Source: an uncultured Agathobacter sp. (lineage in GTDB: Bacteria; Bacillota; Clostridia; Lachnospirales; Lachnospiraceae). From it: a DNA stretch of 64,000 nt. The translations under genes and the position numbers were made by a program. The notes under the pieces were generated by a model that did not search any database, was not told the origin of the DNA, and saw nothing but the letters and a program-made list of their open reading frames with translations. Shown here piece after piece: positions 32,827 through 54,727 of this stretch. The DNA lies in assembly GCA_934307695.1 (NCBI GenBank), contig CAKRCS010000005.1, positions 62,001 to 126,000 on the forward strand. The letters are read 5' to 3'. Numbering within the stretch: position 1 is the stretch's first letter; each line of letters begins with the position of its first letter.

Positions 32827-32903
32827 TTAACCTGCAAAGAGTCACCCAGTGACTTTTTGATCCATTATTATTAACCTGCAAAGAGGCATAGGGTGACTCT
32901 TTG
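32827..32903 (+). promoter_or_regulatory. rimM leader with duplicated 15-mer and alternative hairpins
   Basis: TTAACCTGCAAAGAG occurs at 32827-32841 and again at 32871-32885. Fold 1 gives two local hairpins: AAAGAGTCAC/GTGACTTTTT (32836-32858) and CAAAGAG/CTCTTTG (32879-32903). Fold 2 pairs CAAAGAGTCACCC (32835-32847) perfectly with GGGTGACTCTTTG (32891-32903), 13 bp. The folds exclude each other. T-rich 3' strands suggest transcription attenuation. Ligand or protein unknown. Confidence 0.6.
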
Positions 32904-33460: not shown

Positions 33461-34939
33461 ATGAATTTTCATATTTTGACATTGTTTCCGGATATGGTAA
33501 CGCAGGGACTTGCAAACAGTATCACGGGACGTGCGATAAAGGAGAACAAAATCAGCGTCGATGCAGTCAATATCCGCGATTTTGCGGACAATAAGCATCG
33601 GAAGGTTGACGATTATACCTACGGCGGCGGCGCGGGGATGCTTATGCAGCCACAGCCGGTCTACGATGCGTGGAGGAGCGTCCAGCCGGACGATACAAAG
33701 CGTATCCGCACCATCTATGTGACACCGCAGGGACATACCTTTAATCAGAAAATGGCAGAGGAGTTTGCCAAAGAGGACGAGCTGGTGATCCTGTGCGGAC
33801 ACTACGAGGGGATCGATGAGCGCGTGCTTGAGGAAGTGGTAACGGATTATGTGTCCATCGGCGACTATGTGCTGACGGGAGGCGAGCTTGCCGCGATGGT
33901 CATGGTGGATGCAATCGCAAGACTTGTGCCGGGGGTGCTGAACAATGATTCCTCCGCAGAGATCGAGTCGTTCCACGGCAATCTGTTGGAATACCCACAG
34001 TATTCCAGACCGGAGGTGTGGCATGACAAGCCGGTGCCGAAGGCACTTTTATCCGGCAATCCGAAGGAAATCGGCGCATGGCGGTTAGAGCAGGCAGTCA
34101 GGCGCACAAAGGCACGCAGACCGGATCTGTACGAGAAGTATCTGGAACTTCAGGAGTGTATGCAGCTTCTACTGGAGCAAAAGCTGTTGCACATCGATAT
34201 GATCGAGTGCATCCGAAGAGGCAGCGCGGAGTTGATTTACCGGAATGGATGTGAGATTCTGCTACGGGATAAGGACAGCGATGTGTACATGCACACGAAT
34301 CCGGAGGAAAACGGGGAGTTCCTTGCCAAGCTTCCGCTTATAAAGATGGCAAAGATCCATTGCATTGTTATCCATCAGGAGAGCTTTATCCCTCTGGTAC
34401 AGGCATGTATCCGCGGCACTGTGGGAGGAGCCTGCAGGCAGGCAGTATATACAAGAAAAGAAAAAATGCCGATCAGCGGGCTGTACCGTGCAGATGGCGC
34501 ACCGATGCCAAACGGACTGGTAATCCATGAACTGAGAGAGGAGGACGTAAAGACGGCAGGGGAGGCATATGTCGCCTACGGCTATCTCTCTATGCAGGAG
34601 ACCACGGAGGAGAAAAAGGCTGAGGTGATCGCAGAGGTAAGGGAGCGCTTTTTAGATAAAGCCATGTTTGGCGCGTATATCCGCGCGGAGGATGGAACAG
34701 AAGCCTTTGCCGGCTTTATCGGCAAGCATGAGGAGGGAAGCATCGGTATGCTTACCGTGCTGCCGGAGTACCGGGGACAAAAGATTGCGCTCGCACTGGA
34801 AGCATATATGATCAACCGGGAGCTGGAGCAGGGCTTCACCCCATACGGACAGGTGCGCGAGGACAATACGGCATCCATAAAGCTACAGCAGAAAGTCGGA
34901 TTATGTTTCTCAAAAACACCGGTTTTCTGGGTGTACTAA
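33461..34939 (+). CDS. trmD: tRNA m1G37 methyltransferase TrmD fused to a GNAT acetyltransferase
   Basis: 492 residues, about twice the usual TrmD. Residues 1 to about 235 are a full SPOUT enzyme: YGGGAGMLMQ, CGHYEGIDERV, SIGDYVLTGGELA, and the C-terminal RRPDLYEKY. The frame continues without a stop into about 255 residues of GNAT type, with an acetyl-CoA-binding region at LTVLPEYRGQKIALALEAY and the FR47-like ending EDNTASIKLQQKVGL. TrmD prevents +1 frameshifting by m1G37; the acetyltransferase substrate is unknown. The DNA shows no gap, start or ribosome binding site at the junction near 34150. GGGGAAGGAAG precedes the ATG. Confidence 0.93.
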   Translation: MNFHILTLFPDMVTQGLANSITGRAIKENKISVDAVNIRDFADNKHRKVDDYTYGGGAGMLMQPQPVYDAWRSVQPDDTKRIRTIYVTPQGHTFNQKMAEEFAKEDELVILCGHYEGIDERVLEEVVTDYVSIGDYVLTGGELAAMVMVDAIARLVPGVLNNDSSAEIESFHGNLLEYPQYSRPEVWHDKPVPKALLSGNPKEIGAWRLEQAVRRTKARRPDLYEKYLELQECMQLLLEQKLLHIDMIECIRRGSAELIYRNGCEILLRDKDSDVYMHTNPEENGEFLAKLPLIKMAKIHCIVIHQESFIPLVQACIRGTVGGACRQAVYTRKEKMPISGLYRADGAPMPNGLVIHELREEDVKTAGEAYVAYGYLSMQETTEEKKAEVIAEVRERFLDKAMFGAYIRAEDGTEAFAGFIGKHEEGSIGMLTVLPEYRGQKIALALEAYMINRELEQGFTPYGQVREDNTASIKLQQKVGLCFSKTPVFWVY

Positions 34940-36085: not shown

Positions 36086-36687
36086 CATTCCCTGCACCAT
36101 AGGGCGCATCTTCCTGCCTGCGGGGGACTTTGGTATATGTAAATATATCATACATGTCTGGATGCACCCAATTTAAACAAAAGCATTCACACAAAAATTG
36201 CAAAAATTCTTTCGACCGCTACGGCGGTGTACTTGTTGTGTCTTATAACGGCTTTGACACTCCAAGCCCGACTGTCCAACGGTAGGCGCACTTTTCTGTC
36301 GGACTTCCTAGTCTCCCTAAGCGGGCGTCCTCACAAAGTTGATATTAGGAGCATGCTCCTCGAAACTCGCTTTTTACGCATTCTATATGGGAATGTTTCA
36401 AGCTCAGACAACTCGGAGCATGCTCCCATTTTGCTCGGCACGCCCGCCAAGGGAGACACGAAAGCCCTCGGAAGAAAAGTCCGTCTACCGTGAACAGCCG
36501 GGCAGGAGTGCTCAAACCTTTAGAAGACACGACTGATAGAGAAACCGCCATGCGGTCGGATTAGAATTTTGCAATTTTTGCGTATGCTTTTTAAAATGGG
36601 TGTATACGGACATGGTAAGATATATTAAAATAAGGATAAGTACAAAGGTGCAGGCAGAGAGGATGCGGCTACGCGGGCAGGGGATGT
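36086..36687 (+). ncRNA. Large structured RNA element, copy A
   Basis: About 600 nt filling the lepB-rbgA gap. Terminal arms 36086-36211 and 36564-36687 are imperfect inverted repeats of over 120 nt. Nested inside: CGACCGC/GCGGTCG (36214-36220, 36553-36559); GGCGGT/ACCGCC; GTTGTGTCTT/AAGACACGAC (36236-36245, 36525-36534); TTTGACACTCC/GGAGTGCTCAAA; GCCCG/CGGGC; a side arm 36280-36298 with 36474-36492 (19 bp, one mismatch); GTCTCCCT..GCGGGCGT/ACGCCCGC..AGGGAGAC (36312-36329, 36441-36458); GGAGCATGCTCC twice (36349-36360, 36416-36427); apical CATTC/GAATG. Loop motifs AAACTCGCTTTTTACG (36364-36379) and CTCGGAAG (36468-36475) recur in copy B. No credible protein is encoded. Strand is inferred from co-orientation with flanking genes. 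Family unknown to me. Confidence 0.8.
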
Positions 36688-36720
36688 AAGCGGGCATGAT
36701 GGATAAGAAATGAGGTTAAT

Positions 36721-38380: not shown

Positions 38381-40192
38381 ATGCAGGTATCAGATCTGGT
38401 GCAACAATACAATAATGCAACGGCACGCCCGGAAATGACCGGGACAAAGGGAATCCGCAAGCTGGTATCAACCCTGCGTGATATGAAGTCCGGCAACATT
38501 TTTGAGGGGACGGTCAATTCGGTCAAGGGCGGCAAGGTGACGCTCGGACTTCCGAACGGGCAGGAGGTTACTGCGCGGATGGATGGAAAAGTGCAGCTTA
38601 CGATCGGGCAGTCCATGTTTTTTCAGGTAAAGAGCAATGATGGCACCCAGATTGCCATACGCCCATATACGGTCGAGGGCAACAGCATGAACTTAACGCT
38701 GCTTGAAGCGTTAAAGAGTGCCAATATTCCGGTAGATGGACGGAATCTGTCCATGGTCAACGCCATGATGGAGGAACAGATGCCGATCGACCGCAACAGT
38801 TTAGGACAAATGGCGCGCATTATAAACAGCAATCCGGATTTTGATGTCAAGACGCTTGTGCAGATGCAGAGACTCGACCTTCCGATCACACCGGAGATGG
38901 CGTCGCAGTTCCAGAATTATCTCGATGACAAACAGGCGATCGGACAGGCAATGTCGGACTTTATTGAGGAACTCCCGAAAGCGCTGGCAAACGGTGAGTT
39001 ATCCGCGGAGCAGATTGGCAAGACTGCCGAAGAGGTGGTGCGCATTTTAACAGAGGGGCTTCCAGAGGAGATCGCAGCCCCGGAAGTGGGCGCAGACAGT
39101 GCGCAGACACTCGTGGATGCTGAGACGATGGAAGGACAGGCGGCGCAGAATACCGGGGAACAGCCGGAGCAGATTGCCGGGAAACAGGCGGAGCAGGCTG
39201 TACTGGCAACGGAGGATGGTGCGGCAGCGGAGACCGTACAGAATCCGGGTGCGGCAGAGCCGGATGCAGCGGCTGCACAGGCAAAGGTAAGCTCACAGTA
39301 TGAGCTGCTGGACGAGACGCTGCTGAAAGAGGTGCTTGCGGAGGATACGCCTTATGCACAGCACACGATCGGAGCTGTGCTAAACGAGGATCAGAGGAAG
39401 GAACTGACAGAGCTTCTTAGCAGGCTTCCGGGCATGGAGCAGAATACTTCCGTTTTTGCAGACGGGGGGCTTGTGCCGGACGGCAGCGCAACCGCGCTTT
39501 TACATGCAATCCGCACACAGCTTACCGCAGGAGGCATGGACAAGGAAACGATGCTTTCCTTGCTTTCCGGGAAAGGCTTTGCAGCCCTTGTCAAAGATGT
39601 GATGGAGCAGCAGTGGCTGGTGAAGCCGCAGGAGATCACACAGAAGGATAAGCTGACGCGGCTATATGACAAAATCGAAGACCAGCTTAACCGCCTTGAG
39701 AGCGCGGTCAAAGCAAGCGGGCAATCCGCGGAGAAGGTCACACTGCTTGCGGCGGACATCCGCAATAATGTGCAGTTTATGGATCAGATCAATCAGGCAT
39801 ACACCTATGTCCAGCTTCCGCTGAAAATGGCGGGGCAGAATGCGAGCGGACAGTTGTATGTCTACACCAATAAAAAGAACCTGTCCGATCCGGACAAGGA
39901 GCTGACCGCCTTTTTACATCTGGATCTGGAACATCTCGGCTCAACGGATGTGTCGGTCAGGATGCTTCGGAAGAATGTCAAGACCAACTTCTATTTTGAC
40001 AACGACGAGGCGTATGCACTGGTGCAGGCGAACGCGCCGCTATTGGAGGCTCGTCTGGAGGCGAAGGGGTACAACTGTGACATTCAGGTGGTAAATGAAC
40101 CGAAAAATGTTAATTTCGTTGAGGACTTTTTGAAAAAGGATCAGCCGTCGGCTGGTCTGGTACACAGATATTCGTTTGATATGAGGGCTTAA
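38381..40192 (+). CDS. FliK-like hook-length-control domain protein (YlqG-like)
   Basis: 603 residues. The N-terminus has a small beta domain (GNIFEGTVNSVKGGKVTLGLPNG); the middle (about 220-310) is low-complexity, rich in Ala, Glu, Gln and Gly; the C-terminus (about 475-590) resembles the flagellar hook-length control domain (VQLPLKMAGQNASGQLYVY, LDLEHLGSTDVSVRM, LLEARLEAKGYNC). Bacillus has ylqG at the same place after rnhB. Function is unknown; association with a type III export switch homologue next door is the only clue. Confidence 0.75.
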   Translation: MQVSDLVQQYNNATARPEMTGTKGIRKLVSTLRDMKSGNIFEGTVNSVKGGKVTLGLPNGQEVTARMDGKVQLTIGQSMFFQVKSNDGTQIAIRPYTVEGNSMNLTLLEALKSANIPVDGRNLSMVNAMMEEQMPIDRNSLGQMARIINSNPDFDVKTLVQMQRLDLPITPEMASQFQNYLDDKQAIGQAMSDFIEELPKALANGELSAEQIGKTAEEVVRILTEGLPEEIAAPEVGADSAQTLVDAETMEGQAAQNTGEQPEQIAGKQAEQAVLATEDGAAAETVQNPGAAEPDAAAAQAKVSSQYELLDETLLKEVLAEDTPYAQHTIGAVLNEDQRKELTELLSRLPGMEQNTSVFADGGLVPDGSATALLHAIRTQLTAGGMDKETMLSLLSGKGFAALVKDVMEQQWLVKPQEITQKDKLTRLYDKIEDQLNRLESAVKASGQSAEKVTLLAADIRNNVQFMDQINQAYTYVQLPLKMAGQNASGQLYVYTNKKNLSDPDKELTAFLHLDLEHLGSTDVSVRMLRKNVKTNFYFDNDEAYALVQANAPLLEARLEAKGYNCDIQVVNEPKNVNFVEDFLKKDQPSAGLVHRYSFDMRA

Positions 40193-54135: not shown

Positions 54136-54137
54136 TA

Positions 54138-54707
54138 TATAACCTTGATGGGGCTATGAATTTCTCATCCCCCATCAATAGTTTAATAATTTTACAGCCC
54201 TTATCTCTATGGGGAAAAGTCATTCCGCAAAAATAGTAGAAATTCTTTCAACCATTCATGCGGTGAACCTGTTGTGTCTGATATCGGCTTTGACACTCCC
54301 CGCCCGCCTGTCCGTGGTAGAGGGATTTGCTCTCAAACTTTTTAGTCTCCCTAAGTGGGACGCTTTTGCGAAGTTGATATTAAAACATGCCCTTCAAAAC
54401 TCGCTTTTTATGTGGTTTATGTATGAAAACTGTGTGCTCAAACAGTTGAAGGGCATGTTTACATTTCGCAAAAGCGCCCACTAAGGGAGTCACAAAAGTT
54501 CTCGGAAGCAAAATCCCTCTATCCGCGAACCGACGGGCTGGAGTGCTCAAACCTATAAAAGACACAACTAATGAAGAAACCGCAGGGATGGTTGAAATAG
54601 AATTTCACTATTTTAGTGGTGCTTTTTTCCGATAGAGATAAGGGCTGTAAAATGGTATAAATAGATGAACGGGGGATGCGGGAAGTGCATAGCCCTATAA
54701 AGGAATA
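54138..54707 (+). ncRNA. Large structured RNA element, copy B
   Basis: About 570 nt filling the gap up to the topoisomerase genes; same plan as copy A. Terminal arms 54138-54246 and 54599-54707, including a perfect 22-bp block (54189-54210 with 54632-54653). Nested: CAACCAT/ATGGTTG (54249-54255, 54588-54594); TGCGGT/ACCGCA; GTTGTGTCT/AGACACAAC (54271-54279, 54560-54568); TTTGACACTCC/GGAGTGCTCAAA; GCCCG/CGGGC; side arm 54313-54331 with 54507-54527; CTCCCT..GTGGG/CCCAC..AGGGAG; CGCTTTTGCGAA/TTCGCAAAAGCG (54361-54372, 54465-54476); AAACATGCCCTTCAA/TTGAAGGGCATGTTT (54383-54397, 54446-54460). Loop motifs AAACTCGCTTTTTATG (54397-54412) and CTCGGAAG (54501-54508) match copy A. Several helices differ from A on both strands. 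Strand inferred from neighbours. Confidence 0.8.
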
Positions 54708-54727
54708 AAAAGTAAAGGAGCAGGCGT

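What the first reader, a model, noticed from the sequence alone, without database searches (positions are those of the whole stretch)
36086..36687. Large structured RNA element filling the lepB-rbgA gap (copy A)
A gap of about 600 nt without a credible gene folds on paper into one closed, nested, many-helix structure, with a side arm of 19 bp (one mismatch) and an 18-position interrupted helix. A second, diverged copy at 54138-54707 keeps helices while changing their sequence: CGACCGC/GCGGTCG becomes CAACCAT/ATGGTTG (three compensated pairs), GGCGGT/ACCGCC becomes TGCGGT/ACCGCA, GCGGG/CCCGC becomes GTGGG/CCCAC, and the outer 11 bp of the side arm differ entirely. Loop motifs (AAACTCGCTTTTTAYG, CTCGGAAG, TTGATATTA) stay fixed. 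That pattern is expected of a functional RNA. Size and host resemble reported giant RNAs such as ROOL or GOLLD, but I cannot match it to either.
Basis: partly seen in the sequence, partly recalled or inferred. Interest (0 to 1): 0.93.

Follow-up and report, generated by a model that had tools for sequence, protein, structure and literature searches.

The report
Giant repeated hairpins in Agathobacter relatives
The two long hairpins in this window belong to an apparently undescribed family of repeated hairpin DNA elements, with up to 46 matches per genome in a few relatives of Agathobacter, and their matching arms seem to be kept in step at the DNA level rather than because they make a working RNA, so the usual evidence for a functional RNA can mislead here.

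Summary
Copy A (36086-36690) and copy B (54141-54707) each fold as one giant imperfect hairpin (z -18.6 and -20.2), and the compensated pairs are real. No Rfam family reaches its gathering score in the window.

The interpretation changes. The core matches 28 places in an Agathobacter MAG. A covariance model finds it in 10 of 397 genomes of that family, 7 of them with 10 or more matches. Sampled copies lie beside diverse genes. Copy B is missing from 7 of 7 congeners examined.

Covariation is massive but nearly strand-symmetric. Departures from Watson-Crick pairs are G-U 232 against A-C 213; SRP RNA, treated identically, gives 44 against 13. Outer arms differ between copies yet match within a copy, 7 of 120 perfectly over 40-57 bp.

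Best explanation: a mobile foldback DNA repeat, REPIN-like in form but about 240-600 bp, whose arms are kept complementary by arm-to-arm DNA copying. A functional RNA remains possible, chiefly for the oriented tip. No transposase, target duplication or transcript was shown.

The parts
36086..36690 (+). Copy A: whole giant hairpin (copy-specific outer arms plus conserved core) between lepB and rbgA
   Evidence: single closed fold, z -18.6; left arm complementary to right arm
36172..36602 (+). Copy A: conserved core shared with other copies
   Evidence: nhmmer E 1.6e-134 with the 20-copy profile, of which A is a member
36297..36473 (+). Copy A: apical domain (covariance model R1)
   Evidence: 189.8 bits on +, 39.3 bits on -; A is one of the model's training sequences
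36363..36370 (+). AAACTCGC: 5' half of the widely shared tip motif
   Evidence: position; conserved across genomes in alignment A5
36402..36411 (+). GCTCAGACAA: 3' half of the tip motif (common form GCTCARACAG)
   Evidence: position; alignment A5
54141..54707 (+). Copy B: whole giant hairpin between a PucR/CdaR-type regulator gene and a gyrB/parE gene
   Evidence: single closed fold, z -20.2; orthologous to L018 of G001
54205..54640 (+). Copy B: conserved core
   Evidence: nhmmer E 9.1e-120 with the 20-copy profile, of which B is a member
54331..54507 (+). Copy B: apical domain
   Evidence: 162.8 bits on +, 42.6 on - (training sequence)
54397..54404 (+). AAACTCGC in copy B
54436..54445 (+). 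GCTCAAACAG in copy B
54189..54218 (+). Copy B: left outer arm (30 nt, 93% complementary to 54624-54653)
54624..54653 (+). Copy B: right outer arm

Best explanation
A and B are two members of an apparently undescribed family of large (about 240-600 bp) foldback DNA repeats that spread between genes in some relatives of Agathobacter. Each copy has a conserved, oriented core (a long imperfect stem with fixed internal loops and a tip motif AAACUCGC...GCUCARACAG), in most of the genomes sampled enclosed by outer arms peculiar to that copy. Proposed mechanism: the element moves as a unit, probably as a folded single-stranded or cruciform DNA recognised by an unidentified enzyme acting in trans. The two arms are kept complementary by DNA copying from one arm to the other (template switching or fold-back synthesis at the fork or during transposition). 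Shown: the family, its copy number, dispersed intergenic sites, lineage-specific presence of B, nearly strand-symmetric pairing, and arms that look copied wholesale in some copies. Inferred: mobility, the DNA intermediate and the copying step. Unknown: the enzyme.
For: Multi-copy and dispersed: 28 distinct places in G001 (my count from the 36 rows); matches in G149 46, G119 26, G237 20, G371 17, G185 15, G129 10, G330 3, G315 2, G434 2. Patchy: 10 of 397 genomes of the family with strict filters and 6 candidates scored per genome, so a lower bound; 1 of 62 of the genus, G001 itself, with a DNA query. On a tree of 61 apical domains (2-8 per genome), copies form one clade per genome in 8 of 9 genomes; G129 does not, and G001 and window copies do not under midpoint rooting. 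107 flanking ORFs scanned of 228 extracted are diverse, no Pfam family in more than 2. Copy B: the gap is 18-93 bp in 6 of 7 congeners and holds another hairpin in the seventh; model and profile find no copy in any of the 7. Strand symmetry: G-U 232 against A-C 213 events in 107 copies of 7 genome sets, against 44:13 in 30 SRP RNAs, Fisher p 3.4e-4; variants shared by 3 or more sequences 28:22 against 23:2, p 0.0015. Ortholog pair B/L018: G-T 5 and 9, A-C 8 and 4, other mismatches 16 and 16 in the two directions. Arm copying: 7 of 120 copies have perfect inverted repeats of 40-57 bp; L020's right arm is an inverted copy of its left arm in place of the family's right-arm sequence, and L028's right arm alone has gained the bases that close a bulge seen in the other aligned copies. 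In G129, 120 nt out, own-arm match is 35.8 of 40 while matches between copies are 9.4, near background. Precedents: PMC8794818 (passages) on template switching maintaining hairpins; PMC3116915 (passages) on REPINs with compensatory changes on both sides.
Against: No mobility gene stands out among the 107 flanking ORFs. Y1 transposase genes were not found in the four genomes with most matches besides G001 (G149, G119, G237, G371), and none of the 10 Y1 loci found elsewhere held the element. I could not define clean element ends or a target-site duplication. The outermost pairs do show a G-U excess (139:95, p 0.005). Fixed internal loops and the oriented tip (189.8 against 39.3 bits by strand in A) need selection of some kind, which arm copying alone would erode. 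In G185 only 4 further Watson-Crick types are seen beside 66 wobble or mismatch events, so copying is not fast; G185 also shows no copy-specific matched outer zone. Arms are not wholly private everywhere: G119 and G237 arms keep some similarity between copies. SRP copies are orthologs and these are paralogs, so the control is not perfectly matched; the second RNA control (SAM riboswitch, 9 sequences, 3:0) is too small to settle this.
Confidence: 0.6

Rival explanations
1. A functional large noncoding RNA gene family: the + strand is transcribed and the conserved core (above all the tip domain) acts as RNA, with many paralogs per genome.
For: Deep structure conservation across genomes; 75 of 160 pairs with two-sided change; fixed unpaired motifs; clear strand orientation of the model score; G-U excess in the outermost pairs, 139:95; in G237 the left neighbour is co-oriented in 15 of 15 copies.
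Against: G-U 232 against A-C 213, and 35:53 in the apical part where RNA function should be strongest, against 44:13 in SRP RNA. Consensus G-U pairs are 23 beside 1052 Watson-Crick-majority pairs in the element sets, but 14 beside 73 in SRP. Orientation to the left gene over all scored copies is 66 + to 46 - of 112. Patchy presence and lineage-specific B. Promoter-like sites in the A region are no more than expected (2 overlapping found, 1.1 +/- 1.0 in shuffles).
Confidence: 0.2
2. Selection on the folded DNA itself: the hairpin or cruciform is a recognition site for a host or mobile-element protein (like attC sites or IS200/IS605 end hairpins, recalled), and ordinary compensatory evolution of a DNA fold, not arm copying, explains the covariation.
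For: Near strand symmetry fits a cruciform, where a G-T on one strand is an A-C on the other. Oriented, fixed internal loops and tip. Outer arms carry small local hairpins in many G001 copies (seen by eye).
Against: Perfect 40-57 bp arms with no similarity between copies and the changes in L020 and L028 point to copying. No such protein was identified or sought beyond Y1 transposases.
Confidence: 0.12
3. Intergenic insulators or terminators that amplify passively: the hairpins end or separate transcription units and are kept for that effect.
For: Intergenic position; 3 terminator-like sites in the A region where shuffles give 0.7 +/- 0.8; some arms include terminator-like hairpins (seen by eye).
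Against: Neighbouring genes are co-directional, convergent and divergent alike (40 ++, 24 --, 26 +-, 22 -+ of 112). Terminators do not need hundreds of bases of conserved core (established knowledge).
Confidence: 0.05
4. Remnant of a known intron, ribozyme or OMEGA-type RNA element.
For: Repeated, structured, intergenic.
Against: No intron or OMEGA-type match at gathering in the window or in 20 loci of ten genomes, which gave only two TwoAYGGAY and one tRNA; only sub-threshold hits at permissive settings.
Confidence: 0.03

Closest known systems
REPINs (REP doublets forming hairpins, associated with RAYT transposases; PMC3116915, passages read)
   Same: Extragenic, interspersed, many copies per genome; inverted arms forming one long hairpin; compensatory changes on both sides of the hairpin.
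Bacterial MITEs / foldback elements (PMC10969869 seen only in the listing)
   Same: Non-coding, short, inverted ends, intergenic, multi-copy.
   Different: Almost the whole element is one conserved stem; no parent transposase or target duplication identified; copy-specific arms.
TwoAYGGAY (RF01731; candidate RNA of PMC2864571, one passage read)
   Same: Also multi-copy and interspersed in 5 of these 10 genomes (12-44 matches each); in G185 one lies just 3' of the apical domain, same strand, in 12 of 15 copies; its pairing departures are also symmetric (12 G-U, 11 A-C in 13 sequences).
   Different: Different sequence and fold (two AYGGAY hairpins); does not match A or B at gathering; no match in G001, G119, G237, G434 and G330.
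ROOL, GOLLD, OLE, HEARO giant RNAs
   Same: Size class (recalled); ROOL is rumen-derived by name (PMC12286853, listing).
   Different: No gathering-level match; unbranched single hairpin; dozens of dispersed copies; no overall RNA-type G-U bias.

Membership tests
Structured noncoding RNA | Covarying helices | tested here: met
   75 pairs changed on both sides against 36.8 shuffled, 0 of 500
Structured noncoding RNA | Departures from Watson-Crick favour G-U over A-C on the transcribed strand | tested here: not met
   232:213 overall against SRP 44:13; outermost pairs alone do show 139:95
Structured noncoding RNA | A transcript exists | not testable with these tools
   no expression data held
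ROOL / GOLLD / OLE / HEARO / raiA | Match to the family covariance model | tested here: not met
   0 of 4227 Rfam families at gathering in the window; not among the sub-threshold hits around A or B
REPIN | Interspersed extragenic inverted arms forming a hairpin | tested here: met
REPIN | Highly conserved short REP sequences at both ends | tested here: not met
   outer ends are the least conserved part
REPIN | RAYT (Y1 transposase) in the genome and near copies | tested here: not met
   Y1_Tnp in 6 of 10 genomes, none found in G119, G149, G237, G371; no element at the 10 Y1 loci; genomes may be incomplete
MITE | Terminal inverted repeats | tested here: met
MITE | Target-site duplication | tested here: inconclusive
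   no consistent duplication seen by eye in G149 or G371 flanks (output partly cut)
MITE | Related autonomous transposon in the genome | tested here: inconclusive
   none evident among the 25 commonest of 166 Pfam families in 107 flanking ORFs; whole genomes were screened for Y1 transposases only
TwoAYGGAY (RF01731) | Match to the family covariance model | tested here: not met
   no match in the window and 0 in G001

The most novel reading that the evidence does not exclude
A new class of hairpin-replicating mobile DNA: a folded single strand of up to about 600 bases, recognised through a conserved structured core and tip, is copied by fold-back synthesis at each move, so that every copy gets freshly matched, private arms. 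Classic RNA covariation then arises with no RNA function, and at least one catalogued candidate RNA (TwoAYGGAY) is another member of this class.
Probability: 0.28. Interest if true: 0.9.

Novelty: new variant of a known kind. Interest (0 to 1): 0.72.

Why it matters
Two-sided compensatory change is the standard proof of a functional RNA. Here it is abundant, yet the wobble test says the pairing is not mainly maintained as RNA on one strand. That suggests a simple test (G-U against A-C departures, compared with a real RNA) for candidate RNAs found by covariation, and it raises a question about at least one Rfam entry. The family also offers dozens of natural long palindromes per genome in which to study how bacteria tolerate and repair palindromes, and how hairpin repeats of this size move.

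Tried and rejected
Rfam at gathering and permissive thresholds (for A, for B): no family for A or B; around B, hairpin-shaped microRNA models score up to 33.8 bits (gathering 195), which I take as an effect of hairpin shape. Phage and plasmid records by blastn: no match. Viral contigs scanned with the core motif and with private-arm patterns of three copies, and phage records with one private arm: no match, so the idea that private arms are spacer-like copies of phage DNA has no support from these few tests. RAYT/Y1 transposase as the mover: not supported. Mobility genes next to copies: none stood out in 107 flanking ORFs. Empty-site comparison for copy A: in G001 the core and left inner arm are missing while the right inner arm and outer arms remain; I could not tell a deletion from a site before insertion, and only two species compare there. 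Relatives of G129 for empty sites: 66-71% identical in the best match of each, too far. Target duplications: not found. Literature: searches on this repeat returned 0, 24, 1435, 0, 19 and 15 papers; of the four with any, the first 15, 12, 10 and 8 were listed, and none of those titles describes it. The library is open-access only, so 'undescribed' is provisional. Of the 17 loci of the first genome scan, only L003 and L016 matched by blastn; L009 was also read and its genome searched, without a match.

Rows left out: copies analysed are 120: G149 20 of 46 matches, G119 20 of 26, G237 15 of 20, G371 13 of 17, G185 15 of 15, G129 10 of 10, G434 2, G315 2, G330 3, G001 18 of 28 places, window 2. 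The pairing test used 107 of them; copies cut by contig ends (1 in G237, 3 in G371, 2 in G129) and those of G434, G315 and G330 were left out, as were partial copies of G001. Events are counted once per pair and type, not on a tree. The SRP control took the 30 best loci, from 37 positive of 40 genomes; its mean identity is 0.756 against 0.641-0.876 in the element sets. The G315 and G330 matches are weak (25.7-35.9 bits) and their membership is uncertain. Copy counts are model matches at E up to 0.001 with at most 150 candidates scored per genome.

Full report
Observation. The lepB-rbgA gap (36086-36720) and the gap before a gyrB/parE gene (54136-54727) each fold into one giant imperfect hairpin, far beyond dinucleotide shuffles (z -18.6 and -20.2). 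A 20-copy profile finds no third place in the window. Neighbouring genes: signal peptidase I, YlqF/RbgA, a regulator with a PucR-type helix-turn-helix, and type II topoisomerase B and A subunits.

Family. No Rfam family reaches gathering in the window; hits below threshold are weak or hairpin-shaped microRNA models. A motif pattern scanned over genome contigs gave 17 loci, of which two, both in Agathobacter sp. MAG SUG88, match by blastn. In that genome (G001) the core of B gives 36 rows, 28 distinct places by my count; I treat 18 as near full length. L018 is the ortholog of B: the flanking topoisomerase gene is 98.9% and the regulator 92.0% identical in protein. A covariance model of the apical domain (R1) found the element in 10 of 397 genomes of the family of G001, with only 6 candidates scored per genome. 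Scored more fully, the 9 others gave 46, 26, 20, 17, 15, 10, 3, 2 and 2 matches; those of G315 and G330 are weak. With a DNA query, only G001 of 62 genomes of its genus has it. A MAFFT alignment of 34 apical domains shows what is shared: AAACUCGC, a variable tip hairpin, GCUCARACAG, and AAG...CACGAAA. On a tree of 61 apical domains, copies form one clade per genome in 8 of 9 genomes; G129 copies mix with G149 and G434, and G001 and window copies do not form clean clades under midpoint rooting.

Anatomy. Going outward from the tip, the core is conserved between copies. In G001, G129, G119, G237 and G371 there follows a zone where each copy's two arms match each other better than they match other copies, and then unrelated flanks; G149 has little of this zone and G185 none. 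In G001 at 120 nt out the own-arm score is 22.6 of 40 against 8.1-8.3 between copies; in G129 it is 35.8 against 9.4; in G119 20.4 against 12.2-13.1. Of 120 copies, 21 have perfect inverted repeats of 30 bp or more and 7 of 40 bp or more. Four apically deleted copies in G001 that I folded still have long paired arms (L039, L040, L044, L045).

Is it an RNA? Covariation is overwhelming (75 of 160 pairs changed on both sides, 36.8 in shuffles, 0 of 500). But a functional RNA tolerates G-U more than A-C on its own strand. Counting one event per pair and type at pairs with a Watson-Crick majority, 107 copies give G-U 232 and A-C 213. The same script on SRP RNA of 30 genomes of the same family gives 44 and 13; Fisher p 3.4e-4. 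For variants shared by three or more sequences it is 28:22 against 23:2, p 0.0015. By zone: apical 35:53, middle 58:65, outer 139:95; the outer excess (p 0.005) is a result against full symmetry. The ortholog pair B/L018 shows G-T 5 and 9, A-C 8 and 4, other mismatches 16 and 16, and 13 and 12 two-sided Watson-Crick changes in the two directions. A SAM riboswitch set is too small to help (3:0 in 9 sequences). I read this as pairing maintained mainly at the DNA level. The caveat is that the copies are paralogs, some perhaps dead, while SRP genes are orthologs under selection; the shared-variant count answers this only in part.

How the arms stay matched. L020's right arm lacks the family's right-arm sequence and is an inverted copy of its own left arm over 57 bp. 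L028's right arm alone has gained the bases that close a bulge present in the other aligned copies. Such wholesale changes look like copying of one arm from the other. Template switching at hairpins is proposed to do this (PMC8794818, passages read). In young copies (G185) unpaired changes dominate (4 further Watson-Crick types beside 66 wobble or mismatch events), so copying is not constant. Whether it happens at replication forks or during transposition is open.

Mobility. Copy B is most simply an insertion: the same gap is 18-93 bp in 6 of the 7 congeners whose loci were returned (of 58 with a match) and holds another, 300-bp hairpin in the seventh; model and profile find no copy in any of the 7. 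Flanking genes are diverse (107 of 228 extracted ORFs scanned, no Pfam family in more than two), and the four gene orientations all occur (40, 24, 26, 22 of 112). In G237 the left gene is co-oriented in 15 of 15 copies, a bias I cannot explain. At locus A, G001 lacks the core and left inner arm but keeps the outer arms, which is a deletion or a former state. No mover was found: Y1 transposases were not found in four copy-rich genomes, and none of the 10 Y1 loci found carries the element.

TwoAYGGAY. This catalogued candidate RNA is itself a high-copy dispersed repeat in 5 of the 10 genomes, with many inverted pairs in the listing. In G185 it lies just 3' of the apical domain, same strand, in 12 of 15 giant hairpins. 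Its pairing departures in 13 G185 copies are 12 G-U and 11 A-C, small numbers. It may be the same kind of thing.

Verdict. A real, large and apparently undescribed repeat family (searches in an open-access library, top listings only), closest in behaviour to REPINs and foldback MITEs but not shown to be a member of either by the features tested. The RNA reading keeps about one chance in five, mainly for the oriented tip.

Noticed in passing
L093, L155 and ten other G185 loci; RF01731 matches in G129, G149, G185, G315, G371: TwoAYGGAY (Rfam RF01731) is a high-copy dispersed repeat in these genomes, often in divergent pairs a few hundred bases apart, and in 13 G185 copies its pairing departures are as symmetric as those of the giant hairpin; it may not be an RNA family.
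   Followed up: partly
L230 (G047), gap between the cdaR-type and gyrB-type genes: A different, about 300-bp hairpin occupies the gap where copy B sits in the window species; it does not match model R1 or the 20-copy profile.
   Followed up: partly
window 33461-34939: TrmD (residues 1-232 match TIGR00088) runs on into a C-terminal extension of about 260 residues with no NCBIfam match at E 1e-10.
   Followed up: no
window 38381-40192: A 603-residue ORF with no NCBIfam match at E 1e-10.
   Followed up: no
G237 loci (L063, L073, L081, L088, L100, L135-L144): All 15 sampled copies have a co-oriented gene on the left, unlike other genomes with mixed orientation.
   Followed up: no
L063 (G237) and L034 (G001): By eye, the outer arms include a terminator-like hairpin repeated on both sides of the element.
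   Followed up: no
L159 (G185) 1090-1217: An azaaromatic (yjdF) riboswitch match, 70.7 bits, lies near one copy.
   Followed up: no
window 32835-32903: A 25-nt inverted repeat, 84% complementary with a 19-nt loop.
   Followed up: no
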